Assembly (NCBI RefSeq): GCF_019059575.1
Contig: NW_024881669.1
Location: 806,001-870,000, forward strand
Source: Amphibalanus amphitrite
Lineage: Eukaryota; Arthropoda; Thecostraca; Balanomorpha; Balanidae
Length of the DNA stretch: 64,000 nt
Direction: 5' to 3'
In this document: positions 7,315 through 60,594 of the stretch, in pieces
How the letters are laid out: the number at the start of each line of letters is the position of its first letter
Position numbering within the stretch: position 1 is the first letter of the stretch
Translations under genes and position numbers: made by a program
Notes under the pieces: model-generated
What the model saw: only the letters and a program-made list of their open reading frames with translations
What the model was told of the DNA's origin: nothing
Database searches by the model: none

Positions 7315-8939
<1,625 letters not shown>

Positions 8940-9542
8940 CGGTCACAGCTGCGATCTCCCAGTGTCGGACCGGGCCGCTCCCACTGCCGGTCGTTGGAGG
9001 AACGGTCCCAGCGGAGCACTGACTGGCCAGAGCGTGCCGCGGAGCAGCAGTGACCGGTCACATCGGGTCACTGACCGATCACAAAGCGTCACTGACCGGT
9101 CACATCGGGTCAGTGACCACCGATCGACCACAGTGGGTTACTGACCGTTAACTGCGGGTAACTGACAGACCAATCACAGCGGGTCATTGACCGGTCACAG
9201 CGTGTCAGAGGTCAATTTTTACCTCAGCGGCACACTGACCGGTCAGAGCGAATAAATGGCCGGTCACACCACCCCAATGAGCACCGAGCGGTCACAGCAC
9301 CTTACCAATCGGTCGCATAGGGCCATTGACCACCTGGCACCGGCCGATCTCAGCAGGTCACTGCACGCTGGACACTGGCCGATTACAGCGGGCTACTGAC
9401 CGATCACTGACCGTTTGTCACATCAGGTCACTGACCGGTCACAGCACCTCACTAACCGTCCCTCTCCTATCACAGCGCGTCTGGGTCGGGCCGGTAGCAG
9501 GCGGCCAGGTCACTGACCGGTCACAGCTGGGTCACTGACCGG
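8940..9542 (-). repeat. ~20-22-bp minisatellite directly after the MSTO1 stop codon
   Basis: Read on the minus strand, units resemble CTGTGACCGGTCAGTGACC. The MSTO1 stop codon lies in such a unit (CTG TGA CCGGTCAGTGACC at 9548-9530), so the array starts inside the terminal codons and fills the presumed 3' UTR. A block around 9484-9522 (GGCCGGTAGCAGGCGGCCAG, plus strand) repeats part of the terminal exon (9558-9590), so coding sequence was copied along with it. Confidence 0.8.
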
Positions 9543-12500
9543 TCACAGCGCGTCCGTGTCCGGCCGGTAGCAGGCGGCCAGGTCACTGAGACGCTCGCGG
9601 ACCTCACTGAAGTCGTCCGCCTCCAGGCCGCCGGCGGCGAACCGGTGGAACTTGGACACGTTGTAGCGGCCGACGATAGCGCCCAGGGAGGCCAGGCACT
9701 CGCCGGTCGAGCGGGACGAGACCAGAGAGCCGGCCGCCGGGGCCGACGACACCGCTGTGGCACCGGAGAGGGGCAGGGGAGTTACACAGGGCGACTGACG
9801 ACGGTCGGAAGACAGACCCGGGCACAGTGGGGTGGGGTTTTGTACATCGGAGGACAGTCAGTAAGGGTGACAAATGGCAAAAGAAGCAGACAGTGCATGA
9901 AATCATACATGCTCAAAATGTACGCAATGCTATCATGAACATTGAACGATGTCGATAAAAAGCTCACAACACTAGCATGCCAAAATACACAAAATAGACA
10001 TGCACTACCTACGCTGTGATTGTATTTGTGTAAGTGTGTGTGCGTGTGTGCGCAATACGCTGCAGTAGGTTACCTGAAATAAGGACGTTCTACCTAAGAC
10101 CTGTATTACTCTGATCTACCTAAGAAGTAAGCTGATCAAAAACAGACATCGAAAGCACGCTCGAGCATTTCTAGGTAACTGGGAAGTTAGTAATTCCCCG
10201 CGTCTATCCGATTTCCCTGAGGCATCGCCCTGTCAGGAGGGCCTGATCAAAGAAATCCCATTGGCAGTACTGAGAACGGTAAACGGCAATAAACGCTGCC
10301 TGAACGTCAGAATGGATATTTTAAAATTCATACATAGATGGGCGAGCGACAAAACTTTTCATCTACCCTGTGTTTTTGTCAAATTGCCTTCGTTGTTATC
10401 GCCGGCAAGCATGTTCGATTGGAAAAGAGCCCGAAACAATGTTCGCTTTGAAATGATAGGTATTGCTACAGTATGACTGTTAATTCTGAAAACCGACTAT
10501 AAAAACTGGACGCGGTAGTTACTGAAATGCTTTTACGCAGCATACTCTACTTCCAAGCACTACCTACCCATACCAAAACATGACATATGAAACACGGCGG
10601 TTATAGCGCCGCAAATCCATCAGTTCATCGTCCGCTGTCAATGCCTCAGCGTCTGGAACCTCGCCACCACTTACGTTACATCACCACCCGTGACCTCCCA
10701 CCAGCCGCCACGCTCCTCACCCGTGGCGTTGACCTGTCGGGGTCGGACCAGCCCGTCCGGGCCGACGTCGGCCGTGAACAGGAACGGGAACGGCGCGGCC
10801 GTCCTCAGCGGCTCCCGCAGCCGGCAGGCCAGCTGGCGGCCCGGCCACTGCGCCACCGCCTCCTGCCACGGGTCACTGTCGGATCTGTGGGTAGAGGGCA
10901 CGGGCCACGGGTCACTGTCGGACCTGTGGGCAGAGCGTGTGGGTCACGGGTCACTGTTGGATCTGTGGGCAGAGGTCAAAGTGGGTTCTTGGAGCACAGG
11001 TCATAGGTCAGGGGTTATTGTCGGCCGTAGGCACAAGGCACCGGTCACAAGACACTGCTAGTCGTGCAGTCACTCGTCATGGGTCAGCTGCCGGTACTAA
11101 GGTCACAGGTCACGGGACAAGTGCCAGTTCTGCAGTCACCGGCTAGGTGCCGGGTCTCAAGTTGCCGGTCACGAGTCTGTGGCACTGGGGTCACAGATCA
11201 TGGAGCGTGTGTCACCGTTCACCTGGAGCCACCAGCCGGCTCTCACAGGTCGCTGAACTTCTGTCACTGCTCAGGCGATTCCCGGAACTGGTGCCACGGG
11301 TCTCAGGTGAGCTGTAGCGGCCGGCGAGTTCCGCCCGGATGTGCCGCGCGCCGGCCGCCGGTGCGGACTCCGCCCCGCTCACCGACCGAGTACCGGAGGC
11401 GGCTCAAATGGCACCAGCCCGTCTCGGTATGAAAAGGGAGCCGCTCGGCGGCAATACTCCCCAGTGTACACCGCGGAGACTTCCCGAGGTTTCGCACACG
11501 GCTCCAAAGGTCAGAACCTTTTCAGTGGCGAGCTGAGAAGGCGGATTTCCCGACGGCGCGGGAAATCGGGTGTGGCAACCGTCACACCTAATATTCACAC
11601 GGGCCCGGGCAGCCATCCGTCACCACCCACTTTGGTTGCTTCACCAGTGACATCGCCTATCAAGTTAGTCCATCCCGAAAGGAAAATATTCGAAACAATG
11701 TAAATAAAGAGCGTAACTACGATCAAATGATGCTGTTAAAATAAGATGCAGATTAGGTATACAAATGCTCCAAAATGCATCAAACTATTCTCTGTGCACT
11801 GGTGAGACGTGGCGAGATAATTTTTTGTTTTGTTTAATTGGGTTAGGACCTTTCGGTCCGACAAGACCAGTTCAGAGCCGGAAGGATGATAGGATTTAGG
11901 GGGAGACATTGGTCTGGGCAAGCATCCTAGTGAGTCACCGCGGCTGAGCCCGTCCGAATGAACAGGCCGACCAGCCCCCCAAGTACACACTGCACCAGAC
12001 TACGGGTGTGCTCCCTCGGGAGCAGCGGAGCCGCTCCAAGAGAGCAGCCCGCATGAGATGAGAATTGCCTGTCCAGAGTTGCCTGTCAAGAGTTGCCGCA
12101 TGAGAGTTGCCTGTTCAGCCCGGACCGAGGGTTGCGGCGTGGAGGAGAAGGATTTGATTGTCCCTACGATGGAAACGACGGATGGGTTGGTGGAGAGATA
12201 AAATCGACGCTGGGATGCATCGTATGCGGCAAAGTCTTCTCGGACAGTTTCCAGTCTTGAGCCGTCGAAAACCTAGGCTGCACTCGAATGGAGCTAAGTA
12301 TTTTTGCATACGTAATCCATTGATGATGACCAGTACCTACCACTTGCCAAGTAGTCAATACAAGATCCACTACAAGTCAAGAGGGATAAACAACGTACAA
12401 TTTTCAAAGAGTTAAAATTGTTTTAACCCTCGCCCGCACATGGGGGGGGGGGGGTGGTTGCCACCCCCCCCCAGGCAGTCTTTCTGCTCTGCACTCAACA

Positions 12501-21016: not shown

Positions 21017-24000
21017 ATGGAAACAGAAAGAAAACCAGTCATAACATGTAAGTATGATCCCTACACGATCAAGAGCCCATCCTGGCAATAACATATCAGC
21101 ATTTCTACTGCCAAAACAAAAAATGAAGCATGTTCTCATATCAAATTGATGAGAGAATTGTCATGTTCTAGGTAGATATCAATCTGAATGGTCTTTGTGT
21201 GCACTCAGCCAGGAATTGATTTTAAATAATTGAATGCCCTAGAGGTGCAGTACATCCTCGTTTCCTGACTCCCTCCTGTCTGCCGCAGACGCCGGCAAGC
21301 TGGGAGTGTTCCAGCTGCAGCAGTGTCCCCTGACGCCTTCCCTGTCTCCCCCGCAGACGCCGGGGAGCCGGCGGTGTTCCAGCAGTTGCAGAACGGCCCC
21401 TGACGCCTCCCCTGTCCCCCGCAGACGCCGGGGAGCCGGCGGTGTTCCAGCAGCTGCAGAACGGCCCCTGACGCCCCCCCCCCCCTGTCCCCCGCAGACG
21501 CCGGGGAAACGGCGGTGTTCCAGCAGCTTCAGAACGGCCTGGTGCACGGCCTGCCACAGGAGTCGGTCGAGTGGCGCCGCAGCTACGGCCGTGCGCCGCG
21601 TCACGTCACGCTGGAGGCCAGCTTCGAGCCGTTCTCGGAGGCCACGCTGATGGACGACATGAGCACGCTGGTGCGACGGCCGTGCCTGCACACATTCTGG
21701 ACCGACTGTCCGGTAAGCGGGGACTGAACGTTCGGTGAGAGCGGGCACTGACTGATCTGTGAGCAGGGGTCGATTTTACGGTGAACGGTAGTATCCGTTT
21801 TACGGTGAGCCGTTGTGACTCGTGAATGTCCTGCGAGCGAGTATCGGCTGTCCGTTGAGAGGGGACTGAATGTTCTGTGAGAGATACGGTGGGTCGTTCG
21901 ATAGTCGATTAGAGGGGAGAAACTGTACGGTGAGAGGGGAGAAACTGTACGGTGAGAGGGACATACTGTCTGGTGAGTATGGAACGAACTTCCGGTGAGC
22001 TGAGACCGGATGTCCGGTGAACGGGGTCTGACTGTCTGATAAGCAGTTCTGACTGCCCCTCAAAAGGGATCATCGCACGGTGAGTTATGGCTGATGGACT
22101 GCGGCAGTCAACATTTGGGAACCGATGATAAACGTCATCCGGGTTGTCATTGTGCTGGGACGTCGATCGCAGACAGGAAAATGTGTCGCTTTTCGTTTCC
22201 CTGACACTCTCCCACGCTCGAGTCAGCTAGTTTTCCTCTGAATATTTTGCGGCTATCAAATACACTTTTTGTTGCATCTTACCTCACTTGTTGTTACTTG
22301 ATTTTTGCATTCTTCCATTCTGCTTTTATTCATTAATTTATAGTTCATTAATCGTTTCCTTTTGTATTTCATATCATGCTCAGTGGCCAATTTTTAACTT
22401 TTGTACCCGATGCTCGTTCATCGTACATAACACGTCAACTGTCTTTCCGCCCTCGTCAGGACATTGAGACGTACAAGTCTAGCACGCGCGAGTCGCTCCA
22501 GTCGTGGCTGGCCCAGCTGCGACAGCACAACGTGGTCGACTGGCTGGTGGTGGTGGTCGAGTCGGCCGAGGCGCGCAGCAAGACCAACAAGCTGCTTGCC
22601 GCGCTCCTCGGTCCTCGACAAGGTCAAGGCCGACATCAACAGCAAACACGGAGACCGGTTAGTAGCGTACAGCCGCGGAATCGGTTAACACTCAGTCAGA
22701 TAATTGAAGCCTGCTTAAAATGGAATCGGTTTATATGCGGGTTGACTGATTGTGGATACCTAGATATCATCGAGAAACCAATGGATAAGGACCAGTTTTA
22801 ACATTACATCTCCATATCCGGCGCTCACCGTCGTCTCCCCGTCCCTCCGGATTAAACTCGTGTAACTCCTCCCCCGAGTTGCCGGTCCCCGGTGTCTTTC
22901 GCTTCTCATCTCTGTCCGTTGTTCTGCAGGTGTATCACGCTGCTGGACCCCTCCAAGTCGGACTCCCTCTCTCCCCGCCCCCAGTGTCCGATGTAACCCC
23001 TCCCCTGACCGTTGTTTGGTTGTTCTGCAGGTGTATCACGCTGCTGGACCCCTCCAAGTCGGACTCTCGCTCGGCCGGCTCCCTGCATAGCCTGCTCACC
23101 AAGCTGCGGCACTTCCTGCTGATCGGCTTTAACCGGGTGTTGGTGCGGTTTGAGGACGCCATGCGCAGTCAGCGTGAGTAGCCGGCGAGCGGTGGTGGCG
23201 GGGGACCGTGGCTGCTCTATAACTGCCAGATGTTTAGATTTTATCAGCCAGCAGCTTATCAGTTATACAATTACTGACTCGTGCAAAACAGTTGAAACCT
23301 ACAGCAAATCGTCTGCCTGAAATTTCGTTTCAGTTTTTGACTGTCTTAGATTTTCTGTATACGATTCCCTTTTTTAGCGCCTACGAACTTGCCTCCAGCC
23401 GTCGTTTTTATTCACCCGCATTTCCCTCTCCGCAGGCGAGAAGCGCACTTCGAGCGACTGGAGTTTCTGCCGGTACTTTCCGCTGCAGGAGGAGCTGGCG
23501 TTGTGTTCGGACAGCTGGGCCTCTGTGACGAGGCGCTCGTGCAGTACGACGAGCTGGACGCCCTCTTCACACAGTTTATACTCAACTCGTGCGCTGGAGG
23601 TCAGTTGAACACTCACTGGTTTGCCAGAACACCCGGCATCCGTGGTGCTGTTCACGTTTTGCAGTAGGTAATCTGATTCGAGTTAGCTTATTGTAATTGG
23701 GTTTTGTTTGTGGCGAGGATAAGGAGGAACTTCATATTGGGCACTATTTGGTCCGTGATTATTGGCCAGCCAATGCATCCACAAGTTGTAAATTCATGAA
23801 TCGAATATGAATATTATTTCCTACTACATCCTTCTCGAAACGTTCCTTCTCTAACCGACAGCTGCAGAACTCACGATCCTATGTGTCTCCCAGTCTGTGT
23901 ATAACAGACACACCGCGCTGGCTGGAGACGTTCTCGCAGCCGGTTCAGGGCTGGCAGGGACTGGCCGTAGTGGTACTCTCTGACCAATGTCTCCCCTCTG

Positions 24001-27000
24001 TGTATAACAGACACACCGCGCTGGCTGGAGACGTTCTCGCAGCCGGTTCAGGGCTGGCAGGGACTGGCGGTAGTGGTACCCACAGTGACCAATGTCTCCC
24101 CCTCTGTGTATAACAGACACACCGCGCTGGCTGGAGACGTTCTCGCAGCCGGTCCAGGGCTGGCAGGGACTGGCCGTAGTTATACCCACAGTGACCAATG
24201 TCTCCCCTCTGTGTATAACAGACACACCGCGCTGGCTGGAGACGTTCTCGCAGCCGGTCCAGGGCTGGCAGGGACTGGCCGTAGTGTTACCCTCTGACCA
24301 ATGTCTCCCCCTCTATATGTGACAGACACTCCGCGCTGGCTGGAGACGTTCTCGCAGCCGGTCCAGGGCTGGCAGGGACTGGCCGTGCCCGCCAGCTGCT
24401 CGGAAGAGATGCGGAACGCCCTCTGCAATCGAGAGATGTCGCTGCACGCCTTCAGGTACGGTGCGCCGCGCATCTGAATAGACTCGTAAGTGACTACATC
24501 ATACACGGCGGCGGCGGCAGCGGATTATTTAGGATTTATGTTGATGTTGGATTTATGATTTATGTTTAGGATTATTTAGAATTACTCGTAAGGGAGGCTG
24601 ATCAGTATAATGGTGCGTGGGTGGAAGGTGGAAAATGCGGGACAGCAATGGTGAACAGCTGATTGATCTCGGGAGCGCTTGGACTATTCTATTTGGAACA
24701 TCATAGGAGGTAATTGATGGCTGTTTTTATCTACATGCATTGCGACTGCCGTGTGTAAAGTGCGTCGTTTTAGCCTGCTAACCCCAGAATCCGTTCTCTG
24801 TGGCAGGAACTACCTGTACGCGCGTCAGTGTGTTTTGCTGAAGAAGCTGGACCGTACTCCGGAGATCGCGCAGCGCACCATCACCTTCCTCTTCAACACC
24901 ATCAACGAGCTCGGCCTCATGGGGCTCGAGATCCAGCAAGGTAACGTATTATTAACATCCACGGAGAATATAACAGCATGTGAATATGGAGCCTTGTTAA
25001 CCTCTAAATAACGAGAGTTGGAAGTGCTTTATATTTTCGCTTTCTTGGAAACGAGTTCATTTACATAGGACTCGATTATAATGCTTAGATGGCAGCGCCG
25101 TCCTGGTTCGTCGGGACCGGCGCTAACCCGCTCTGTCACCCTCCCGTTCGTCAGCTGATCTTTGCGCTGACAGGCGGCATGACCTGCTGGACGTCCGTCG
25201 GCCGATCTCTGCCCGGCTCCCACCAGTGTTCTAAAATTGGATATTGGTTGGGTGTGCCGATGAAGAAAAAAATCATAGGATGAGAAAAAGAAAGAAAATA
25301 ACTGCAGTATTTTTGTAAAATAGTGTAATAACTAATAATGCCAATTTTTATGCTAACTGATAAACCAGGATTTCATGTCAGGATCTTGACAGGGTGTGGA
25401 ACAAAAGGATGTGGGTGCATCAACTGTCAAGTGACAAGTGAACTGGCTGTTGGGAATACATGAAACTCTGTTCAGAGATGAAGTCAAGTCGGTCATTCAT
25501 ATTTAGGGATGAAAATATTTTCCCCATTAGGTGTGATTTGCCATCAAAAAGGCTGAAAAATGAAACACTGGCTCCCACTCAATACCCCGTGTCCCACAGG
25601 CGGCGTGGCCTGCTGGGCGTTCGTCACCTGTATCAACGTGCTGGACATGTGTGCGGAGATTCCGGCAGACACGGCGGCCCAGCAGGGCATCGGCGTGCAC
25701 ACGGCTAGTCTGTACGACCAGGCGCGACTCAAGGTTGGTCAGGCGGGGACGCCGTGGGGAGGAGGGGAGGGGGACGCACGGGGGCAAGAGTAGTAGGGTA
25801 GGTGGTCGGGGGATGCGGGTCTCCTAGAATCCAGCTAGGACTGACCGCGCGTTATTATGCGCCGGTCTGGGACACATTTCAGTTACACAATTGACTGCCC
25901 ACGACTGTAAAACATGAGGGGTGGAGACTTCCATTTCGCGTCTAGCTAGACGCGTCTAAGTCTTAGACGCGTCTAACTGGACGGCGTCTGCGTCTAGCTG
26001 GCGACTGCTAACTTAAGACGCGTCTAGCTTGGAATTCTCCGTCCATGCCAAGCTAGACGCCAACTTGGACGTCTGCTCAGTTAGACGCCAGTTGGACGCC
26101 AGTGGAAGTCTCCACCCGAGGTGTTTTATGGTGTGCTAGCCGGCCCCTTCGGACGCAGGAATATGATGGGTGTCATATAATTAGGGTATGTCACACCAAA
26201 TGAGCTGTTTGTCTGGGGTAAGTGCGCTCGGTAACTGACTTATCTGTATTTACTCTCGGGTCATTGGTTTTATTGTCTATTGGTTTTATTGCCTAAATCA
26301 CACCCTAGCCTCCCTACTGGATGAGCTGTCTAACAGACTTGGTTTATTGTGTCGATAGTTCTGCCAGGCCCGTCTCTAAACTGCCAGCTGCTAAGTGCTA
26401 TGCATTTTTTAGAGCTGTGCTGGCTGCTGTGTGTCCTGGTTCCCGCTCACGGTTCGTCTCCATCCGTCCCTGTTCCGCCGACAGCTGTACAGTCTCGGAG
26501 ACCTGTGCTGTAGTCTGCTGTGTGTCCTCGGTAACCGTCCCCTGTTCCGCCGGCAGCTGTACAGTCCCGGGGGACTCTGCCCTCTGCTGTGTGCCATTAT
26601 CTGGTCTGCCGGCAGCTTTACAGTCCCGGGGGGCTCTGCTCTCTCAGCTGTGTGTCCTCGGTAACTGTCCCCTGTTTCTCTTGCAGCTGTACAGTCTCGG
26701 AGAACTGTGCGGGCTGCTGCCGGGTGACGAGCCCACCTCCTCCCAGCTACACCTGATGGTCACCCTGTCGGCCGGCATGGGAGACAACTCGCCGGCCGTC
26801 GAGAAACTCAAGGACGCCCTGGCCGGACACGACGCCTTCCAAAAGTGCTACCTGGTGAGCCAGACGAGCTAGCCAATGGTGTTGGAGTTTTGTGTCGTCT
26901 GCTCGGCTATTCATGGGTGCGCACTGCGCATGTGAAATATTCTGATTCATCACGAATTGGTTCGTCACGAATTCATTCTAATTGCGCGTCAATAAAACGT

Positions 27001-30000
27001 CTCTTTCGGTCAATGGCGTTAAGCGAACAGTAGACACATCAATGGTCCGCTGGTCGCCTGTGGTATAGTACCGGCGTCGCTGACCTGCCGCTGCCGTCCT
27101 CCCCGCCCCCCTAGGAACTCTCCGAGCTGGCGATGGGCACCTACAAGCACATGGGTCGTCTGCGGTTGGCGCGGCTGGTCGGCCGTCAGCTGGCCTCGTT
27201 CCACCTGCGGCTTGGCCAGGCCGCGCACGCCGCCTCGCTGCTGACGGACGCGCTGAAAACCTACCAGGAGGAGGGCTGGGGCCGGCTGGCCGCCCAGCTG
27301 CTGCTCCAGCTGGCCCACTGCTACCAGCTGATGGGCGACCGGCAGCGCTACACGCAGACCTGCGCCCTGGTGGCCGCCAGCGAGCACGTGCCGCACCAGA
27401 CGCGGCTCGAGTTCACCGAGCGGCTGCGCGCGCCGGCGGCCGGCGCTGAGCCGCGGCTCACGCTGGCCGCCGAGGAGGTGGTGTCGGTGCGCGAGACGCG
27501 GCTGGCGGCGCCCGACTCGGAGCCCTACCCGGGCGCGCGGCTCGAGGTGCGGGTGACGGTGGAGAGCCGCCTGCCGGCGCCGGTGGCGCTGAGCCGCGCG
27601 CGCGCTGACCTGCAGCCGGCGCCGGCCACCGAACAGGTGAGCCGCAGCACCAGCTCGGCCAGCACCTCGAGCGCCGGCTCGGTGCGGCGCGGCGGCGTGG
27701 CGCGCCGGCCCAGCTCGCCGGCAGCCGCGGACGGGCCGGTGGCCGGCGGCGGCGAGCTCTGCCTCGAGCCGGCGCTCGAGTACAAACAGGACCGCAGTCT
27801 GAGCGCCGCCACACTCGTCTGCCGTAACATGTTCAAGGTGCTGCGGCGCAAGGACAGCGGTCAGCCGGCGGCGCTGGCGCGGCCCAGCCACCTGCCGGCC
27901 GCCGCCTTCCAGCAGAGTCTGGAGGCGGTGGATGTGACGCTGCAGCCGGGCGCCACCGAGCTGGTGCTGTCTGCGCGCGTCCAGCAGCCGGGCACGTATG
28001 TGGCGCGCCACCTGCAGCTCAGCTGCCCGGCGCTCGACCTGACGCTCGACCTGGCCCGGCCGCTGCGCTTCGCCGTCAAGTCGTCTCCGCACCAAGTGTC
28101 GCTGAACAAGTCAGCCGGCGACCTGCTGGCCGGCACCGTGCAGCCGATGACGCTGCAGATCGTGTGCGGCAGCGAGCCGCTGCCGGGCCCCTCGGCCGTC
28201 CGTCTGCAGTGCTCGCGTGGCCTGTCGGTGCGCGCCGCCGACGGTGACCCGGCGGCGCCCTGGAGCGACGAGCTGCAGCTGCACGTGCCGCCGCTGGAGG
28301 CGTTCCAGAGCGCCCGGCTGCCCGTCTCGGTGCTGTCGCAGCTGGCGCACGTCAAGGACGGCGTCAGCGTGGTGCACAAGGTGGGTTAGATGGGACCGGG
28401 GCCGCTGATTGAGAGGGGTGTGCTTTTGTCGCTCCGGTAGCACTCTTAGGTGACAGCAGAAATCCATGATTATTCGTATCTTGTGAAAAATAATTTTGAT
28501 TCAATCATTTTAAGGCGAGGAGCACTAGGCCTTTTTCCATTTTGATGGAAGCTGCACTGTGGCGTTGTGATATACTTATTATGCATTTTTATCACAGTTT
28601 TATGAAGCTCTGGTATTACACTTGTCGGTGTTCCAATATGCTGGGCTCTTTGGCTGATACAGGGCCACTCGGCTTGTTTTCAGGTGGACATTATCTGTCC
28701 GTGGAGCGCTGTTCCTGTCGAGGCCGAGCTGCACTTTCTCTTGCCGTTCTCTGCCGCCTTCAAGGTGCACACGTCCAACGTCAGGAAGTTTCTACAGGTA
28801 AGGTCTGCCGGTGATCACCGGCTGTTGTGGGACACGTGTCTTATCCAAACATACGATGACGAATTTCGAGTATAACACAAAATTATTATTTCACTGTTAT
28901 TGAAACGTTGAGTCAGCGGAGGTGCCCCCATAATTTTGCGATTTTAGTTTCACATGGCGAAAATATAGCTGAATAAACGCAAATCCAGCTCTGCTGGTGA
29001 GTGGCGCCACAGAAACCTTTTTAGGCGCAATTTCAAAAAGTTAAAGGCCAAATTCAAAAAGTGTACGTTCAAAATGCACGTGACCGTTTTGAATTTGGTC
29101 TTTGACTTTTTGAAATCGCGCCTAAAATGCTGTAGTGCTGACTGCTGACTTCCCTGGCTCGCGAATGTCGTTCTCCTGACTGTGTTCATCTGTCTGTCTG
29201 TCATCGGCAGGTGGTGATGCACGGTCTAAACACAGCCGAGTTCGAGCTGACCCGGCCGGCGCTCACCGTCGTAAACGACGCGCCCGTTGAGCTGACGCCG
29301 CTCAACGAGACGGCAGAGACACTGGTGAGTTGGAGCTCTTGTTGAGCCAAGGCTGACGGGCGGATACAATGAAGAAACATGACGCATGGCTATAAAAGGC
29401 AATGTCGTGACCAACGGAAAGACATGTTGATGAGATTCATGGCCCACGAGGATACACGTAAGAGGTATGGCTGTGAGGGAGAGACATTGGCGAGGTATGA
29501 CGAATTGTGTGCTCTTCGAACGTATGTTTAATGCCGGTTGATATAATCAGCTGGTTTGTGGGACACGTGATTCAGGCTAACTCGGCCAAAATGACAGATG
29601 CCATGGAATGAGACCATCGCTACTTTGAGAGCCGACGCCACCACGGCCCACAGGTGGTTTCAAGTGAGACGGGCGTGTCGTACATGTGTTAGCCGACGTG
29701 ACCCTGCTCCCCACGACAGGTGGTGTCCACTGTCCAGTGAGACGAGCGTGTCGTACATGTGGGAGATGGTGCTGTTGATCTGACCTCGACCCCACGACAG
29801 GTGGTGTCCAGTGAGACGAGCGTCTCGTACATGTGGGAGATGGTGCTGCTGATCTGACCTCGACCCCACGACAGGTGGTGTCCAGTGAGACGAGCGTGTC
29901 GTACATGTGGGAGATGGTGCTGTCCAAGGAGACGCCGCCGGTCCGCAGTCAGTTCAGCGTCGAGTACCGCGCCGTCGACGCCGAGACCAGGCAGCGCTTC

Positions 30001-33000
30001 AAATTCGACTTCACCGTCTCCGACTACCGGGTGAGTGCCGGGCTACTGGGACAAACATTGTAGACACTTTGCGGCGCCTGAGTTCTGGATCAGATTTGAC
30101 GGTGTGACTAACATTGTTTGGCTCGCTAAATATAGCGTTTTGTTCTGAGTTGATATTTGTAGTTTTTATGTGAGCTGCTGCTAGCCTCATGCGGTCGCGT
30201 CATTTTTTCGCACCTATGACCGTACTATCTACCTTTACTATCTACTATCTATCTACCCTACTATCTACCCTTCGTAGTTCATTACAGTACATACGTGTTT
30301 ATCTCCCTCTCCACAGACTCTGCTGAGTGTGACGTGTCGGATGGAGCCGCTGAAGGGCGCCGAGTTCTGCCGCTCTGGCTCCATCTGCCAGCTGCACGTG
30401 ACGGTGGCGCAGGAGGACGGCACCGCCGAGCTGCGAGCCGTCATGTACGAGGTGCTGGCCGACCAGAACATGTGGGCCATCTGCGGACGGAGCTCAGGTC
30501 AGTCAGGATGGGGTAACGGGGTAACATATGGGCCATCTGCGGACGCAGCTCAGGTCAGTAGGTGATAGGGGTAACGGGGTAACATGTGGGCCGTCTGCGG
30601 ACGGAGCTCAGGTCAGTGGATGGTGGGGTAACGGGGTAACATGTGGGCCGTCTGCGGACGCAGCTCAGGTCAGTGGATGGTGGGGTAACGGGGGTAATGA
30701 GAGGGGAACCGTCTGAGCCAGCCGCTAGCAGAGTGTATAATATAGAGGGGTAACTGGGGTAACGGAGAGGAAAGTGTGTTTCTCTTTCTCTTCAGAGGCA
30801 GAAACATACTTTTCGAGGAGCGCTGTGGCCCGAAGGTTTGGACTTTGAATTGTGAAAAACGCCCGCCCGCCGCAAAACGCAAACACCGCAAAACGCGCAA
30901 AACGCGCAAAACGCACGCCCGAAACGCCAACGCAAACGTCGCAAAAAAATAAACAAACGCCCGCCCGCCGCAAACCGCAAATAAAAAAACGCAAAAAACG
31001 CCACAAAACAATAAAACCGCCCGCATCGCACGCCCGCTAACCGCCAACCGAAAACGCCTTAAAATCGCCCGCCCGCCGCCAAAAGCAAACACCGCAAAAA
31101 AACGAAAAAGCGGTCGCCAACCGCAAACAAATTTAACACCGCAAACGACGCAAAAAAAAAAGAAAACCACCCGCATCAACCGCCCGCCCGCCCGCCGCCA
31201 AAGACAAACACCGCAAAAAAAAACACAAAACGCCCACCCGCCGCAAAACGTAAATACCGCAAAACGTGCAAAACGCACGCCCGAAACGCCAACGCAAACG
31301 GCGAAAAAAAAATCGCCCGACCGCCGCAAACCACAAAAAAAACGCCGAAACGCCGAAAAAAAATAAAACCGCCCGCACCGCACCGACGCTAACCGCTAAC
31401 CGAAAACGACTAAAAGTCGCCCGCCAGCCGCCAAACGCAAACACCGCAAATAAGCGCCCAGCCGCAGCAAGATAATAATTTGTCAACGACTGGCACAGGG
31501 GTGTCGATTTTTCAAAATGGTTGGGGGTGCTCAACCCCTGCACCGGGTGAAAGATTGCAGCTTTGTAATGGGGCACAACCGTACAAGGCAGGGTTGGTTA
31601 TCCCCATAAGGTACTGATAATGCCGGGATTTCCACTAACATTTCCCAAGGGCAGAACGTTCTTGAAAATCATTCGGCTCGTGCTAGTACTTGGCTACCTT
31701 ATTACATAAACATCTTTCCGAAAAAAGTCGTATATTTGCCGGCAGCATGGCAGCAGCCCCGACACCTCTGTAATAAGGTGAAGAGAAACCAATGACGGCG
31801 ATTAGCACCGGTGCAGCAGCCGCTGCGGTCCGCCGCGCAGGGGCGGACATTGCGCGGAGGCAACGGTAGCTACGAGGCTCTGGCGGTAATCAGACGATCC
31901 CAATAATGATCGCTGAAAAATGACAGGTGACCGCATTTGGATATTTACGGGAATTTACGATTGTCCTCAGTGGCGTAGCCAGGTGGGCCCGTGAGGCACG
32001 TGCCCCCCCCCCATCAGGTTCGGGCCTCAGGGTCCCCTCGGGTTATTCGGGCCTGAGGGGCCCTGAGGCGCCAATTGGCCGCTAAGGGTCAATGTTGGCC
32101 ATATTTGGACTAAGAAGGGATCCACGGGGCTCGTAAAAACCCCTCATGGGCCCACAAGTATTAACACTAAGATCTCCATAAGGGCCCCAAGCCAGTCTCT
32201 GATGGCCCCTTACCGGCTTCGGAGGGCCACATGTCGGACTCTGGGGGTCTTAACCGGCCTATTCCCAGCCAGCAAATTTGGTCTTGGTCGTAGCTGGTTT
32301 TACTCTGGCTAGCTCCGGCATTTGCTCCGGCTAAAGTACGGGCAAGGCAAGGCCTGGGGCTCTACTGGAGCTGACACACGATACCGGAGCTCGCCCGCAT
32401 CACAGCCGGACTTATGCCGCATCAGCTGTGCCGTACCTCCACCGTACTTCAGCCACAGTAAGCCAGAGCAGCTATGAGGTGCAGCCGGACCTGGTCGTAG
32501 GGAGCCGGACTAGAGCCATGGCAGGGAGCCTGATTTGAGCCAGACTTGGCGGTCCGGAACCATACCAACCCGGGAGCGCTACGGAAATACTGGCTAGCCG
32601 GAATAGAGCCGTATCGACCCAAACCCCGGATCTGACGGCGTTCCGTTTATACTGGCCCAAGTCTGGCATGTCGGAGCTGCCGGGGCAAAACGGACTTGCG
32701 CCGAACCAAATTGCTGGCTGGGTAAGGGGGCCAGCTCTAGGAGCTCTGCACTCGCGTGTAATGGCCCCATACCCATTTCTCTCAGGGCCCCTATAACGGC
32801 GACTGTGAGGGCCCTCTCCGACGCCCCTGAGCGCCACACCGGCGTCTCTGAGGGCACCACACCCCTAACTCTGAGGCCCTACACCAATGCCTTTAAAACC
32901 CCTACATGGGCGGTTCTGAGGGCCCTCGGCAGTTACCAGCGACCCTAACGGTCCCACACAGGTGACTCGGAGGGTCCCAGCTGCGTCTGAGAGCACCATG

Positions 33001-36000
33001 CCGGTCTCTGAGAACCCCACAAGGCTCCTGAAGGCACCGGTGACCTCTTGATATCTTCTTGTCGGCCTATGAAGGGTCCGTTCCGTAACAGCAGTTCTGA
33101 GGGCCACACGCGCGCCTGTGATGGCCCTAAATCAGTGTCTCTGAGAGCCCCCACAACGGCGCCTGTGAGGCCCATCACCGGCAACTGTGAAGCCCCTACA
33201 CCGGCGCCTCCGAGGGCCATACATTGCCATATCTGAGGGCCCCGCACTATTGCCTCTTAAGGCCCTATATCGGCGGCTCTGAGGGCCCAACACCGTCGCT
33301 TCTGAAGCCTGAAGGCCCCACAAGCATGCACCTATGACGGCCACCCACCGGTGACATTTGAAGGCCCCCACACCGGCGACTCTGAGGGCCCCATCGGCGT
33401 CTGAGTCCGTGCCGGTCTCTAAAGACGACCCCACAGGGTTTCTGAAGGTACCACCGGCCTCTGATGGCCCTTTGCCGGCCTCTGAGGGCCCGTCGCCGGT
33501 CTCTGGAGCCCCCTGCCGACTTGTAAAAAGGGTACGCGTTATCATATCAGCTCTAAGGGTCAGACACTCGTGTACGACGGACCCACACCAGTGTCTTTGC
33601 AACTTAACGTCTTTTTTTTGCCCTTCTTCTTAAGGCTAACTTTTCTTTTCTTTACATCTTTATTTCATGCATTGTAAATTGCGTAATTATTTTATTTTTA
33701 GTAGTGAAAGACTGCTGAACCAACTATTTTCCTCAGGCAGAGTTAGTGGGAGTTATAAAGGGACAAAATAATTGGGGGTGCTAACTGGAACATTTGGGGG
33801 TGCCCGGAAAACCATTGGGGGTGCTAACTGGAACATTTGGGGGTGCCCGGAAAACCATTGGGGGTGCTCATTTGAGCATTGGGGGTGCTGCAGCACCCCC
33901 AAAAGTATACAAATCGACACCCATGGACTGGCATACCGTTAGGTTGGTCATTTTCGCGAATCAAAAATATATCTGCAAAAATCTCCTAGATGAAAGCGCC
34001 CGAGTAAAAAACGGATGGCACGTGCGTGTTCCTCGCCCCCAACTTCCTTCAGGTCAATCGTCCTTTGGGTCACCTAACGCATTGACGACCGGCTGGGTGG
34101 AATGAACATTGCGCCAAGAAACGTAAGCATATTGTCAAAAAGAATCCCCAGAATGGTGGATCCCAAAAGTTTGAAACTACCACTTTGACCCACTGGACGA
34201 CACCTTAAAGGGACTATCCCACCTTTAACATGGGGTTTGAGTTGAGATAGCCAAGTTTGCGGCGAGGTTCAGAAACCACTATCTATCTAGTTTGCAACCC
34301 TCGCGGCCTCTAGGTGTTGAAGAAATTCGTTCCCTTCATTTGAAAATGGGCTTTGTACAAGGCCCTATCTTCAACATGGAGCGACCGTTAGTGTGACGTC
34401 ACCTCGTTTAGTCATTCTGATTTAAATGGGTTTGTTCGTTGAAAAATCGCTTAAAACTTGGTCTGAACTTTGTTGTGGTGCCTACAGAGTAAAAAGAATC
34501 AGCTTTATGACAGTAATGTGGCCTGGGGAAGGAGGTAATTTTGGGCTGTGACGTCACATATTTGAAAGTTTGTGTTTGGAATATGGGAAGCCTAAGATGT
34601 TTAATGAAAAATAAATGCCAGAACCGTGTTCCTGGCCATCCAATCTATAAAGTCGGGCACAATTTAACTAGTTTTAACAACATTTTAGAAGGTGGGATAG
34701 TCCCTTTAAACAGTTGCCGACCGGATGACACCCATTGTTTGGTCACCCACGCCATAGTATGCATCATGGGTGCGCCGAAATGACCAAAAGTCCCTATTTC
34801 CGGTGTGCAGGGTCATTTTCAACGGCACGTGGCACGTGGTTCTGGACTTTTCCGGCCACTTTGCGACATACCCATGGGTAGTGCACCGAATGGTGGTTGA
34901 TCCGCATGGAAGAAAATGGGGGGTCATTTGGATCGTTTTCGAGCAATCTGCCGTGGAACGCATTTTTTCATTTTGCCCATTGGCTTAACACGGGAATTTT
35001 CAAAGTCACGTGGCACGTGCACCAGATGGTCCGTGGAGGGGAGACCCATACCAGAACGTAGATCACCTGGCCCACTAGAAATCCTGAAAAAATCAAAATT
35101 TTTGGAACAGCCGTTTTCTAGAGCATCAAGTTGTACTGATCTCAGGCAGCTTTTGCCAAATTGTCAGGGAACTCAGATTTGTTTTTCAATAGAAAAACAC
35201 AATTCTAAAGAATAGTGTTTTAACTATTGACAACAAACCTTCGGTTATGTTAGTGGTGATGATAATGGTAGGTAGACTAGGTACCGTGTCATTAGCACTG
35301 GAAAGTTTCTTGCAGGTTGCTGAAGTGAATTACTTTCTTGGCATTTTCCGCTGATAACTTAATGACGTTTAACGTTTGAGTAGGTGTCCGACTTTCCGGC
35401 GTGCCCTGTGTACTCACCGGCGCGTTGCGGTGTACCCTGTATCGGCAGGCGTGCTGGACATGGGTCCGGACACGCGTCACGTGCTGCAGCTGGAGGTGAT
35501 GCCTCTGACGGGCGGATTCCTGCCGCTGCCCACCGTCCGACTCAGCCGCTACATCCCGGCCAACAAAGGTAAGAGACTAAGGGGCATGGACCAGTCACTG
35601 TCCGACTCAGTCGCTACATCCCCACCAACAAGGGTAAGGGACTAAGGGGCATGGACCAGTCAGTGTCCGACTCAGTCGCTACATCCCGGCCAACAAGGGT
35701 AAGGGACTAAGGGACATGGACCAGTCAGTGTCCGACTCAGTCGCTACATCCCGGCCAACAAGGGTAAGGCGCGTGATATGGACTGACCATGGTCCTACAT
35801 CCCGATCAACAGGGGTGAAGGGCGTGATATAGACCACCCACGGTCCTACATCCCGGCCAACATGAGTGAGGCCTAAGTCAGGCGCGATATGGAACTGGAG
35901 GTGCTCGATTACTGCTCGAGGACCGCGCTGACCCAGCTGACCCTCTCCCTCCCTCAGAATGTGTGGAGGGCCGTGCGCCCACACTCTCCCTTCCTCTTCA

Positions 36001-36247
36001 GTTTGTCGATGGCCGCTCACCCCTCCCTCCCCCATGCAGAGTGTGTGGAGGGCCGCGCGATGACCCTCCCCCCCCCTCCTCAGAGAGCACCGAGGGCCGC
36101 GCGCTGGTCACGGGCTCCAGCCTGCCGCGCCTGGAGCCGTTCGCCGCCGGCCAGGTGTACAGCGCCTCGCGGGGACAGCAGGTGCACGTGCTGGCCACCA
36201 GCGCGCCCGGACTGGCCGACCGATCCGCCGACGTGTCGCTCTCGTAA
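21017..36247 (+). CDS. TRAPPC10: TRAPP complex subunit 10 (TRAPPC10), 16 coding exons, ~1143 aa
   Basis: TRAPPC10 is a TRAPPII subunit that helps activate Rab GTPases in Golgi trafficking. Exons: 21017-21047, 21498-21712, 22460-22657, 23031-23173, 23436-23599, 24326-24455, 24807-24940, 25600-25733, 26687-26854, 27115-28380, 28684-28797, 29211-29324, 29875-30030, 30317-30497, 35449-35568, 36084-36247 (TAA). All boundaries are GT-AG and phases agree. Family signatures: VEWRRSYGRAPR (exon 2), VDWLVVVVES (exon 3), DEALVQYDELDALF (exon 5), RNYLYARQCVLL (exon 7), the 422-codon exon 10 with TLVCRNMFKVLRR, SYMWEMVLSKE (exon 13), VMPLTGGFLPLPTVRLSRY (exon 15) and LPRLEPFAAGQVY near the C-terminus. Length is near that of vertebrate TRAPPC10 (about 1260). 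Two 1-nt frame breaks occur, an extra base near 22595 and a missing one near 23504. At least nine junctions carry tandem echo copies. Confidence 0.95.
21265..21535 (+). repeat. echo array at TRAPPC10 exon 2 acceptor (4 copies)
   Basis: Units beginning CTGAC at 21265, 21330, 21400 and 21468 (periods 65-70 bp) each contain a polypyrimidine tract, CCGCAG and the first ~45 bases of exon 2 (GCGGTGTTCCAGCAG). The last copy is the real exon. In copies 2 and 3 the exon-like frame runs into an in-frame TGA right after AACGGCCCC, so use of those decoy acceptors would truncate the protein. Confidence 0.95.
21700..22090 (+). repeat. 22-bp array of 5' splice-site-like units after TRAPPC10 exon 2
   Basis: About 14 degenerate units with consensus ACTGTCCGGTGAGAGGGG follow the exon 2 donor (CCG|GTAAGC at 21713). 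Most units keep CG|GTGAG or a one-base variant. The end of exon 2 itself (GACTGTCCG) is unit 1, so the array is an older, more diverged copy series of the exon's 3' edge. Confidence 0.8.
22915..23066 (+). repeat. echo at TRAPPC10 exon 4 acceptor (2 copies)
   Basis: TTCTGCAG plus the first 36 bases of exon 4 (GTGTATCACGCTGCTGGACC) occur at 22930 and again at the real exon start 23031, 101 bp apart. Confidence 0.95.
23880..24400 (+). repeat. echo array at TRAPPC10 exon 6 acceptor (5 copies, ~104 bp)
   Basis: Exon-like starts after AACAG or GACAG at 23908, 24011, 24117, 24222 and the real one at 24326. Each unit holds TGACCAATGTCTCCC, the acceptor and the first ~72 bases of exon 6 (GCGCTGGCTGGAGACGTTC). 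Copies are about 95% identical. After the copied exon part each unit passes into GTAGTGGTACCC or a similar sequence instead of the true exon continuation. Confidence 0.97.
25169..25205 (+). repeat. diverged, separated copy of TRAPPC10 exon 8 start
   Basis: GACAGGCGGCATGACCTGCT and following bases match the real exon 8 acceptor and start at 25597 (ACAGGCGGCGTGGCCTGCTG) with several substitutions, about 430 bp upstream. It looks like an old echo. Confidence 0.6.
25910..26126. mobile_element. 217-bp TIR element rich in TAGACGCGTCTA palindromes
   Basis: Ends AAACATGAGGGGTGGAGACT and, as reverse complement, AAACACCTCGGGTGGAGACT form a 24-bp imperfect inverted repeat (4 mismatches), flanked by TA on both sides (25908-25909 and 26127-26128). 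The interior consists of overlapping palindromes TAGACGCGTCTA and variants such as GCGTCTAGCTAGACGC. The TA flanks fit a Tc1/mariner-type MITE; it lies in TRAPPC10 intron 8. Confidence 0.65.
26460..26715 (+). repeat. echo array at TRAPPC10 exon 9 acceptor (4 copies)
   Basis: Acceptor plus exon start (CAG|CTGTACAGTCTCGGAG) at 26485, 26557, 26616 and the real exon at 26687. Units of 59-72 bp include TGTGTCCTCGGTAAC and CCTGTTCCGCC between copies. Copies 2 and 3 are more diverged (CTGTACAGTCCCGGGGG). Confidence 0.93.
29640..29935 (+). repeat. echo array at TRAPPC10 exon 13 acceptor (4 copies)
   Basis: CACGACAG followed by the first ~50 bases of exon 13 (GTGGTGTCCAGTGAGACG, GTCGTACATGTGGGAGATGG) at 29654, 29720, 29801 and the real exon at 29875. 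Periods are 66-81 bp; the first copy is the most diverged. Confidence 0.95.
30466..30700 (+). repeat. echo array at TRAPPC10 exon 14 donor (4 copies, ~57 bp)
   Basis: The last ~32 bases of exon 14 with the donor (TGCGGACGGAGCTCAG|GTCAGT) recur with donors at 30498 (real), 30554, 30612 and 30669. All four donors are intact and near identical. Confidence 0.96.
30845..31480. repeat. T-poor low-complexity tract (CCGCAAAACGC-like)
   Basis: The plus strand is almost free of T for about 600 bp and built of irregular CCGCAAAACGC and CGCCCGCCGCAAA words of roughly 10 bp. The strand asymmetry opens long Phe/Arg-rich frames on the minus strand that I regard as artefacts. It abuts the hAT-like element that starts at 31496. 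Confidence 0.85.
31496..33925. mobile_element. hAT-like non-autonomous transposon in TRAPPC10 intron 14
   Basis: The left end CAGGGGTGTCGATTTTT pairs with the right end (reverse complement CATGGGTGTCGATTTGT). An exact 8-bp direct repeat GACTGGCA flanks it at 31488-31495 and 33926-33933. An 8-bp target duplication with CA-G-type ends is typical of the hAT superfamily. GGGGGTGCT-type subterminal repeats occur near both ends (31524-31532; five or more between 33770 and 33900). No transposase remains. Confidence 0.85.
32000..33600. repeat. degenerate ~24-bp minisatellite inside the hAT-like element
   Basis: Loose repeats around CTCTGAGGGCCCCACACCGG fill most of the transposon interior, especially 32780-33520, before which the sequence is irregular. 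Confidence 0.7.
34209..34705. mobile_element. TTAA-flanked MITE, copy 2
   Basis: Ends AGGGACTATCCCACCT and AGGTGGGATAGTCCCT, flanked by TTAA at 34205-34208 and 34706-34709. The left subterminal segment (TTTGAGTTGAGATAGCCAA) matches the right subterminal segment of the element at 545-1011, so it is the same family in opposite orientation. No coding capacity. Confidence 0.8.
35549..35870 (+). repeat. echo array at TRAPPC10 exon 15 donor (6 copies)
   Basis: The exon 15 end (CCGACTCAGCCGCTACATCC, then CGGCCAACAAAG|GTAAG) recurs with donors at 35569 (real), 35634, 35699, 35764, 35815 and 35866. The first four are spaced 65 bp and the last two 51 bp, with the GGACCAGTC spacer changing to GTGATATGGAC, so two unit types were amplified in turn. 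Confidence 0.95.
35950..36105 (+). repeat. echo array at TRAPPC10 exon 16 acceptor (4 copies)
   Basis: Acceptors CAG at 35955-35957, 35999-36001, 36037-36039 and the real 36081-36083, each followed by a version of GAGGGCCGCGCG. Periods are 38-44 bp. The second copy (TTTGTCGATGGCCGC) is the most diverged. Confidence 0.88.
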
Positions 36248-59356: not shown

Positions 59357-60594
59357 ATGGCCGACCGGCTGACGCAGCTGCAGGACGCCGTCAACGAGCT
59401 GGCCGAGCTGTTCTGTAACAGTGTGGGCATCCTGCAACAGCAGGCGGCGCCCGGCCACTTCCCCGGCTTCGACCGCGCCGGCGGCCGCACGCCGCAGCAC
59501 GTGCAGCCGGCAGAGGACTACGCCCAGCTGTTCGCCACGCTTATCGGACGCAAGGCCAAGGACATTGACACGCTGATCGACTCGCTGCCCAGCGAGGACT
59601 CCTCCACCGAGCTGCAGGTGAGTGGATCCCCCCACACCGAGCTGCAGGTAAATGGACCCTCCCCCCCCACTCACACACGGAGCTGTAGGTGAGGACTCCT
59701 CCACTGAGCTGCAGGTGAGTGGATCCCCCCCCCACACACACACACCGAGCTGCAGGTAAACGGACCCCCCCCCCCCTCCACTGAACTGTAGGTGAATGGA
59801 CCCCTCCCACACCCACACCGAGCTGCAGGTAAATGGACCCCTCCCACACCGAGCTGCAGGTAAATGGACCCTCCCCCACACACACACACACCGAGCTGCA
59901 GGTAAATTACCCCCCCCCCCACACACACACCGAGCTGCAGGTAAATGGACTCCACTCACACCCACACCGAGCTGCAGATGAGGACTCCTCCACCGAACTG
60001 CAGGTAAATACCCCCCCCCCCCACCCCACCCCCACCCACACCGAGCTGCAGGTGAGGACTCCTCCAATGAACTGCAGGTAAATGCCCCCCCCCCCGCCCC
60101 CCCCCCACCGAGCTGCAGGTAAATCCCCCCCCCCCCCGCCCCCCCACACCGAGCTGCATGTAAGGACTCCTCCACCGAACTGCAGGTAAGTCACTCTGCT
60201 CTCAGAGCTATACAAAGTACGGGTGAATGGAAACTCCTCCACCAAAATGCAGAAGATAACTTCCTCACCGAACTGTGACGGAGATCCCACTATCACTGAC
60301 GACCCCGTGAGGACTCAGCACCTCTCATTAAGAAGTGGGAGCAACTGCTGCTGTATGGCACCTCGCTGGCACTGTATTCAACTCCGAGCCCACCGCTGAC
60401 CGGGCCACCTCTACCGGCAGCTGTCCGCCCTGGAGCTGCTCGAGCGGGAGAACGAGGCGGCCGGCCAGCGGCTGCGGGAGGTGGTGTCCCGCGGCGAGCA
60501 GCTGCTGCAGCGGATCCAGGAGGCGCTGCACGATATCGCGCAGAGCCAGCTGGACACACAGCTGCTGCTGGCCGGACACCGGCCCGAGCCGTGA
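59357..60594 (+). CDS. MED21: Mediator complex subunit 21 (MED21), 144 aa
   Basis: MED21 is a core subunit of the middle module of Mediator, bridging activators and RNA polymerase II; it pairs with MED7 through a coiled coil. Two exons, 59357-59617 and 60421-60594, join in phase 0. The first encodes [37 protein letters not shown] and TLIDSLPSE, the second [20 protein letters not shown] and [11 protein letters not shown], all matching the family. The length of 144 equals human MED21. The start ATG is the first of the conserved [10 protein letters not shown]. The single intron (59618-60420) is mostly made of repeated copies of the end of exon 1 with its donor site. Confidence 0.96.
59600..60190 (+). 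repeat. echo array of MED21 exon 1 donor (about 17 copies)
   Basis: CCGAGCTGCAG|GTAAATGGACC or GTGAGTGG units, 26-43 bp apart, separated by C-rich and CA-rich runs. Ends of intact AG|GT copies: 59617 (real), 59647, 59688, 59714, 59755, 59791, 59828, 59859, 59901, 59940, 60003, 60051, 60077, 60118 and 60185. Two more have altered donors (59977, 60159). Some units also copy GAGGACTCCTCCACC from the exon. Nearly three quarters of the intron is this array. Confidence 0.97.

What the first reader, a model, noticed from the sequence alone, without database searches (positions are those of the whole stretch)
21264..36105. Exon-edge echo arrays: splice junctions tandemly copied into the neighbouring intron
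In TRAPPC10 at least nine junctions (acceptors of exons 2, 4, 6, 9, 13, 16; donors of exons 2, 14, 15; plus an old copy for exon 8) carry 2-14 tandem copies of the splice site together with 10-75 bases of exon. Four other genes in the window show the same. Sequences differ from junction to junction, so this is not one repeat family. Periods range from 22 to 105 bp and divergence from near-identical to weak, implying a continuing process. Tandem duplications containing AGGT are a proposed route of intron gain; here they pile up beside existing introns instead, creating rows of decoy splice sites. I know of no description of this as a genome-wide habit.
Basis: partly seen in the sequence, partly recalled or inferred. 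Interest (0 to 1): 0.93.

Follow-up and report, generated by a model that had tools for sequence, protein, structure and literature searches.

The report
Splice-site echo arrays in barnacle genes
In a barnacle genome about a quarter of the sampled exon-intron borders have been copied in tandem into the next intron, often with intact splice signals and with copy numbers that differ between the animal's two chromosome copies; this kind of repeat was known from a few amphioxus genes ("mirages") and here looks like a common feature of the genes sampled.

Summary
The window comes from the barnacle Amphibalanus amphitrite. In 364 kb (13 genes, 113 junctions) 26 do: 15/56 acceptors, 11/57 donors; five genes have none. 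Arrays cover junctions about 2.7 times more often than uniform placement predicts if exon overlap is limited to one repeat unit (13 seen, 4.7 expected, P 4e-5). A cruder null gives 13 against 10.3, P 0.15. The assembly keeps a second haplotype; by match coordinates 8 of 11 arrays compared differ by about a unit or more, some being present on one haplotype only. So the process is current and an assembly artefact unlikely.

New here: the phylum, the frequency, and one surprise. The copies keep GT/AG (113/118) better than neighbouring exon-derived dinucleotides (682/809; 19 arrays higher, 2 lower), though the rest of the splice motif shows no such preservation.

Likely mechanism: recurrent local tandem duplication, tolerated at junctions because the exon-adjacent copy stays intact.

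The parts
21264..21539 (+). TRAPPC10 exon 2 acceptor array: 3 decoys + functional acceptor (exon starts 21498), unit ~68 bp
   Evidence: TRF; score 73; alignment
21691..22092 (+). TRAPPC10 exon 2 donor array (exon ends 21712), unit ~22 bp, 4 alignable and several degenerate copies
   Evidence: score 40; 11 motifs vs shuffle mean 1.4
22918..23052 (+). TRAPPC10 exon 4 acceptor, one decoy 101 bp upstream of the functional site (23031); by match coordinates absent on haplotype contig C121
23884..24386 (+). TRAPPC10 exon 6 acceptor array, 4 decoys + functional site (24326), unit ~105 bp; 103 bp longer on C121
25170..25194 (+). old decoy of the exon 8 acceptor (functional 25600)
   Evidence: score 38
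26468..26708 (+). TRAPPC10 exon 9 acceptor array, 3 decoys + functional site (26687); decoys apparently missing on C121 (202 bp shorter)
29640..29923 (+). TRAPPC10 exon 13 acceptor array, 3 decoys + functional site (29875), unit 74 bp
30467..30693 (+). TRAPPC10 exon 14 donor array (exon ends 30497), 3 decoys, unit 57 bp
35531..35877 (+). TRAPPC10 exon 15 donor array (exon ends 35568), 5 decoys, unit 65 bp; about 4 units longer on C121
35939..36105 (+). TRAPPC10 exon 16 acceptor array, 2 decoys + functional site (36084)
   Evidence: score 28
59605..60191 (+). MED21 exon 1 donor array (exon ends 59617), 15 aligned copies, unit ~37 bp; intron 421 bp on C121 against 803 here
   Evidence: gene model 100% identical to A. 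amphitrite MED21
62777..62996 (+). coiled-coil gene acceptor array (functional 62975), 3 decoys; ~56 bp longer on C121
63633..63768 (+). coiled-coil gene donor array (exon ends 63654), 3 aligned decoys; ~158 bp longer on C121
14053..14229 (-). MSTO1 acceptor array (first exon base 14082), 2 decoys + functional site, unit ~67 bp
   Evidence: exon confirmed by public protein P0121
10865..10975 (-). MSTO1 acceptor array (first exon base 10884), unit 39 bp
8938..9565 (-). MSTO1 stop-codon/3'UTR edge with 11 partial copies downstream (stop 9543-9545), unit ~21 bp; the unit also holds a donor-like GGTCAGT

Best explanation
These are 'mirage'-type minisatellites. In this barnacle's genes short segments (about 20-105 bp) are often duplicated in tandem. 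The arrays then gain, lose and homogenise copies by slippage or unequal exchange. Copies deep in an exon are removed by selection because they damage the protein. A duplication that straddles an exon-intron border is tolerated, because the copy next to the exon body stays intact and the extra copies are spliced out with the intron. The array therefore grows into the intron as a row of decoy splice sites. Shown here: the arrays, their frequency in the sample, allelic differences (by match coordinates), the excess at junctions under one of two nulls, and intact GT/AG in most decoys. Inferred: slippage or unequal exchange as the engine, tolerance as the filter, and faithful use of the exon-adjacent site.
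For: 26 of 113 junctions in 13 genes carry a spanning echo, with a clear score gap: 1 junction scores 24-28 and 30 score 28 or more. Exon interiors are almost never duplicated (0-2% at 72-120 nt inside), while intron positions are 15-28% duplicated up to the junction (made before the MSTO1 model was corrected). Arrays spanning a junction: 13 of 46 against 4.7 expected (P 4e-5); outside the window 6 of 26 against 2.1 (P 0.009). The second haplotype differs at 8 of 11 arrays compared: exon-4 echo absent, exon-6 array 103 bp longer, exon-9 decoys apparently absent, a donor echo of exon 8 with three copies found only there, MED21 intron 421 vs 803 bp and both coiled-coil arrays longer, exon-15 array ~4 units longer. 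The public (predicted) MED21 and MSTO1 proteins use the exon-adjacent copy. Amphioxus reports describe the same anatomy, 6 versus 3 units in two haplotypes, and regular splicing (PMC3087553, passages).
Against: The junction excess is null-dependent: 13 against 10.25, P 0.15, when arrays may overlap exons freely. GT/AG in decoys is kept better than neutral tolerance predicts. Echoes are uneven: 0 of 24 junctions in NDUFS7, WARS1, RAS, SNX and FLOT. CTGCAG/CAGCTG lies at 6 of 26 echo junctions against 3 of 83 others (P 0.006; one motif chosen after looking; junction set before the MSTO1 correction), which hints at a mutational bias I did not establish. No RNA was examined.
Confidence: 0.78

Rival explanations
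1. No preference for junctions at all: tandem duplications hit introns uniformly, and those that happen to cover a junction are simply the ones a reader notices.
For: Duplicated fraction is flat from junction to deep intron: donors 0.19 at 0-12 nt, acceptors 0.27, deep intron 0.18. Whole-array null 13 vs 10.25, P 0.15; stronger arrays 13 vs 9.3, P 0.05. 60 other arrays in the sample are not enriched for acceptor motifs (KS 0.73) and only weakly for donor motifs (KS 0.04).
Against: Flat coverage up to the junction is more than uniform births predict if arrays may not extend far into the exon; with overlap limited to one unit 13 vs 4.7, P 4e-5, and 9 vs 3.2, P 6e-4, without TRAPPC10.
Confidence: 0.27
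2. The decoys are functional: spare splice sites kept by selection as redundancy or for alternative splicing.
For: Decoys keep both core bases in 113 of 118 copies vs 682 of 809 for exon-derived dinucleotides 2-9 nt away (19 arrays higher, 2 lower, 4 equal, P 0.0002); placebo at 80 intron positions shows nothing (36:35). Holds against codon-position 1-2 sites (15:2, 8 equal, P 0.004) and in agreement among decoys alone (14:0 of 16, P 0.001). 49 of 126 decoys score at least as high as their own functional site (junction set before the MSTO1 correction).
Against: Against matched AG/GT dinucleotides P is 0.011 in one design (10:1, 9 equal) and 0.11 in another (9:3, 7 equal). The rest of the motif is not better kept than random substitution (20 arrays, +0.55 bits, P 0.22). 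Some echoes are absent from one haplotype. An earlier masked profile put donor GT level with the exon side.
Confidence: 0.18
3. Assembly artefact: misassembled or expanded long reads.
For: TRAPPC10 exons 3 and 5 each change frame inside the exon, and haplotypes are uncollapsed.
Against: Copies are diverged and individually distinct; a separately assembled haplotype gives array matches at several of the same junctions with other lengths.
Confidence: 0.03
4. Footprints of intron birth by AGGT duplication (Rogers model) rather than echoes of existing introns.
For: Several units contain AGGT at the junction (MED21, TRAPPC10 acceptors 4 and 13, donors 14 and 15).
Against: In 47 introns the donor-junction and acceptor-junction sequences never resemble each other at score 24 or more, also not in the 4 introns with echoes at both ends (scores 10-19). 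Units of acceptors 2, 6, 9 and 16 lack AGGT at the junction.
Confidence: 0.04

Closest known systems
Amphioxus 'mirages' (Adh3, globins BflGb6/BflGb9, troponin C, PGBD5)
   Same: Minisatellite-like tandem copies of exon-intron boundaries, at both 5' and 3' sides, units 10-160 bp, many but not all copies with AG/GT, copy number differing between haplotypes (6 vs 3), regular splicing reported (PMC3087553 and PMC3902484, passages seen)
   Different: Here in an arthropod, at 26 of 113 sampled junctions rather than in single genes; splicing was not tested; allelic differences inferred from match coordinates
[quoted passage not shown] potato RdRp case, fission yeast 24-bp case)
   Same: Tandem duplication of sequence holding splice signals; the potato event copied an intron-exon structure (PMC4974935, passages seen)
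   Different: Here existing introns are lengthened; no new intron was identified
Ordinary intronic minisatellites
   Same: Tandem units of about 20-100 bp with variable copy number
   Different: The unit includes exon edge and splice site, with an excess at junctions under an exon-overlap-limited null

Membership tests
mirages | Tandem repeat unit spans an exon-intron boundary | tested here: met
mirages | Both donor and acceptor boundaries can be affected | tested here: met
   15 of 56 acceptors, 11 of 57 donors
mirages | Copies carry AG/GT splice signals | tested here: met
   113 of 118 copies
mirages | Length differs between haplotypes | tested here: met
   match coordinates on C121, 8 of 11 arrays compared; letters of C121 not seen
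mirages | Somatic instability | not testable with these tools
   no reads available
mirages | Regular splicing undisturbed | not testable with these tools
   no RNA; public MED21 and MSTO1 protein models agree with use of the exon-adjacent copy
Rogers-type intron gain | New intron bounded by two copies of one duplicated segment | tested here: not met
   0 of 47 introns have donor and acceptor junction sequences alike at score 24 or more; decayed likeness below that would be missed

The most novel reading that the evidence does not exclude
In this barnacle, exon-intron junctions are preferred birth sites of tandem duplications, and the resulting decoy GT/AG signals are kept by selection, so many introns carry a segregating reserve of spare splice sites.
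Probability: 0.2. Interest if true: 0.85.

Novelty: new member of a known kind. Interest (0 to 1): 0.6.

Why it matters
If about a quarter of junctions in a genome carry rows of similar splice sites that differ between alleles, that genome is a natural experiment on how the spliceosome picks one of many near-equal sites, on the tolerance of decoys, and on whether tandem duplication feeds intron growth and intron gain. It also warns that gene predictors and short-read assemblies may fail at such junctions: my own gene finder chose a decoy for TRAPPC10 exon 4 and for an MSTO1 exon.

Tried and rejected
Considered and set aside: one dispersed repeat family (units differ between junctions); assembly artefact (second haplotype); intron birth; all arrays in the sample being splice echoes (60 other arrays). 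Composition does not explain echoes: exon-edge GC 0.672 vs 0.641, P 0.12; intron GC P 0.31. Rfam at gathering thresholds found nothing in the window. A first pass on unverified gene-finder exons gave spanning echoes at 22 of 94 acceptors and 20 of 92 donors against 268 of 4549 non-exonic positions, but reversed sequence yielded 41 internal exons against 98 in the real one at that threshold, so I do not lean on it. The extents were faulty (query and target overlapped) and are not used. One search counted an MSTO1 'donor' that lies inside the last coding exon; one search is the corrected count. The control included positions inside arrays and is not used. The stop-codon array of MSTO1 looked like proof that splicing is not involved, but its unit contains a donor-like GGTCAGT, so a 3'UTR intron cannot be excluded.

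Full report
WHAT WAS CHECKED. The window is G000:C172:806001-870000 of an 807.55 Mb assembly in 2644 contigs. The MED21 model read from the window (59357-59617 joined to 60421-60594) is 100% identical over 144 aa to Amphibalanus amphitrite MED21. The public A. amphitrite MSTO1 protein lies on a contig of 891,079 bp, the length of C172. The organism is therefore the barnacle A. amphitrite.

THE OBSERVATION. At 29 curated TRAPPC10 junctions the best junction match in the adjacent intron is bimodal: ten score 28-96 and nineteen score 14-21. Copies aligned base by base contain the splice site, part of the exon edge and a stretch of intron; the functional site is the copy next to the exon body.

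BEYOND TRAPPC10. I fetched 300 kb more, built a simple gene finder from the window's exons and kept 13 genes. Evidence for them: MED21 and MSTO1 by public A. amphitrite proteins; TRAPPC10 by a 71% identical Pollicipes protein; a mitochondrial carrier, an NDUFS7-like gene (Oxidored_q6), ankyrin+Death, Lactamase_B (ETHE1-like), CoA-transferase III (AMACR-like), Ras, PX and a class I tRNA synthetase (WARS1-like) by Pfam; a coiled-coil gene (no Pfam hit) and a flotillin-like gene only by open frame and appearance. The '-like' names and the name coiled-coil are recalled. Exon ends were set by hand for TRAPPC10, MED21, the coiled-coil gene and one NDUFS7 exon, four more ends were corrected, and the MSTO1 model was replaced after the public protein was seen. 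Other ends are the gene finder's, and a few may not be true splice sites (for instance the last WARS1-like 'donor'), which would lower the echo rate. In the corrected count 26 of 113 junctions have a spanning echo: TRAPPC10 10/29, MED21 1/2, coiled-coil gene 2/9, MSTO1 2/12, carrier 1/9, ANK 4/12, ETHE1-like 3/6, AMACR-like 3/10, and 0 of 24 in NDUFS7, WARS1, RAS, SNX and FLOT together. Four further junctions reach the score without spanning. Genes outside the window give 11 of 47.

IS THE JUNCTION SPECIAL? The fraction of duplicated positions is about 0.15-0.28 throughout introns, stays flat up to the junction and falls to 0-2% at 72-120 nt inside exons; 886 random positions in the sample give 0.065 (before the MSTO1 correction). 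Introns of these genes are richer in arrays than the rest of the same contig (C172: 9.4% vs 4.1% of bases). With arrays placed uniformly and free to overlap exons, 13 junction-spanning arrays are seen against 10.25 expected (P 0.15; for stronger arrays 13 vs 9.3, P 0.05). That null lets whole arrays lie in exons. If overlap is limited to one repeat unit, 13 of 46 are seen against 4.7 expected (P 4e-5); without TRAPPC10 9 of 31 against 3.2 (P 6e-4); outside the window 6 of 26 against 2.1 (P 0.009). I take a 2-3 fold excess as likely but not proven.

TWO HAPLOTYPES. CCT-family hits fall largely on pairs of contigs, so the assembly seems to keep both haplotypes. The allele of the window lies on C121 (minus strand): identity is 87-92% in the seven matches longer than 600 bp and 72-97% in the shorter ones. 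I could not fetch its letters and compare match coordinates only. Exon 4: C121 is 101 bp shorter between the matches, the spacing of decoy and functional site, so the duplication is absent there. Exon 6: C121 is 103 bp longer, about one unit. Exon 9: C121 is 202 bp shorter, and the first decoy and the functional site map to the same place, so the decoys seem absent. The donor edge of exon 8, which has no echo in the window (score 18), matches three further places just downstream on C121 (651046-651221; E 2e-9 to 3e-4). MED21: intron 421 bp against 803; the array part is about 480 bp shorter, with about 100 bp added elsewhere. Coiled-coil gene: acceptor and donor stretches about 56 and 158 bp longer. 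Exon 15: the array recurs in register at steps of 131 and 127 bp, about four 65-bp units more. Little change: the stretch with donor 2 is 19 bp shorter, that with exon 13 is 43 bp shorter, that with exon 16 is 17 bp longer. So 8 of 11 compared differ by about a unit or more. Not compared: acceptor 2, the old exon 8 copy, donor 14 and MSTO1. This supports a current process and makes an assembly artefact unlikely.

WHAT THE DECOYS LOOK LIKE. A splice-site score trained on echo-free junctions puts 49 of 126 decoys at or above their own functional site (a GT or AG within 6 nt was accepted as the decoy site; junction set before the MSTO1 correction). To ask whether the core dinucleotide is kept, I detected copies with the core masked. 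Core bases are kept in 113 of 118 copies; exon-derived dinucleotides 2-9 nt away, tested the same way, in 682 of 809; per array 19 higher, 2 lower, 4 equal, P 0.0002. Dropping the spanning condition gives 21:2. Eighty placebo positions in duplicated intron give 36:35. Codon-position 1-2 controls: 412 of 471, 15:2, P 0.004; agreement among decoys alone: 14:0 of 16 arrays, P 0.001. Against these: matched AG/GT dinucleotides give P 0.011 and 0.11; an earlier two-base profile put donor GT (0.86 pooled) level with the exon side; and outside the core the motif is not better kept than random substitution (20 arrays, P 0.22). Copies within an array are not independent, so the P values are per array. 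I treat core retention as suggestive.

A CASE WITHOUT A KNOWN JUNCTION. At the end of MSTO1 the last codons, the stop and the start of the 3'UTR recur in 11 partial copies downstream, and the public protein ends at that stop. This would argue that any coding edge can be echoed. But the unit holds GGTCAGT, a donor-like sequence, so an intron in the 3'UTR is not excluded. Five other coding starts or ends tested show no spanning echo.

NOT INTRON BIRTH. In 47 introns the two ends never resemble each other at score 24 or more; 4 introns have echoes at both ends, 16 at one, 27 at none.

WHAT IS KNOWN. Repeats spanning exon-intron boundaries were named 'mirages' in amphioxus Adh3 and found in globins, with units of 10-160 bp, AG/GT in many copies, length instability, 6 and 3 units in two haplotypes, and regular splicing (PMC3087553, abstract and passages). 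The PGBD5 paper adds that Adh and troponin C mirages do not generate aberrant mRNAs (PMC3902484, passages). The original Adh3 paper (PMC117041) is not held. In my literature searches no listed title or start of abstract points to this in barnacles or other arthropods. In two barnacle genome papers the word 'tandem' does not occur in the main text (PMC8270832; PMC8917513; passages only). [quoted passage not shown]

VERDICT. Real, common in the sample and still changing, but a new member of a known kind. The most likely mechanism is recurrent local tandem duplication filtered by selection against exon damage. Whether junctions attract duplications, and whether decoys are kept by selection, are open and testable.

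Noticed in passing
22460-22657 and 23436-23599: TRAPPC10 exons 3 and 5 each seem to change reading frame within the exon; probably one-base assembly errors, otherwise a broken allele.
   Followed up: no
30498-35448: TRAPPC10 intron 14 is 4951 bp here, but window 30460 and 35300 lie only about 0.56 kb apart on haplotype contig C121; about 4.3 kb, which contains 20-25 bp minisatellites (33112-33505), is apparently missing there.
   Followed up: partly
25223-25574: A ~350 bp dispersed repeat in intron 7 with 93-95% identical copies on dozens of contigs (only the best candidates were scored).
   Followed up: no
40552-40614: 27-bp tandem duplication inside the first part of a gustatory-receptor-like open frame on the minus strand (identity recalled, not searched); 27 keeps the frame.
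   Followed up: no
5858-6662: Large decayed 22-bp array whose minus strand reads CACAG|GTCAGTG, a strong donor motif (for 6286-6662 the donor score is reached by 0.5% of background segments); possibly the echo of an unrecognised exon.
   Followed up: partly
22429-22433: On C121 about 213 extra bases lie about 30 bp upstream of the exon 3 acceptor; could be a haplotype-specific acceptor echo or an insertion.
   Followed up: no
49839-50105: Minus-strand open frame resembling a retroelement RNase H region; identity recalled, not searched.
   Followed up: no
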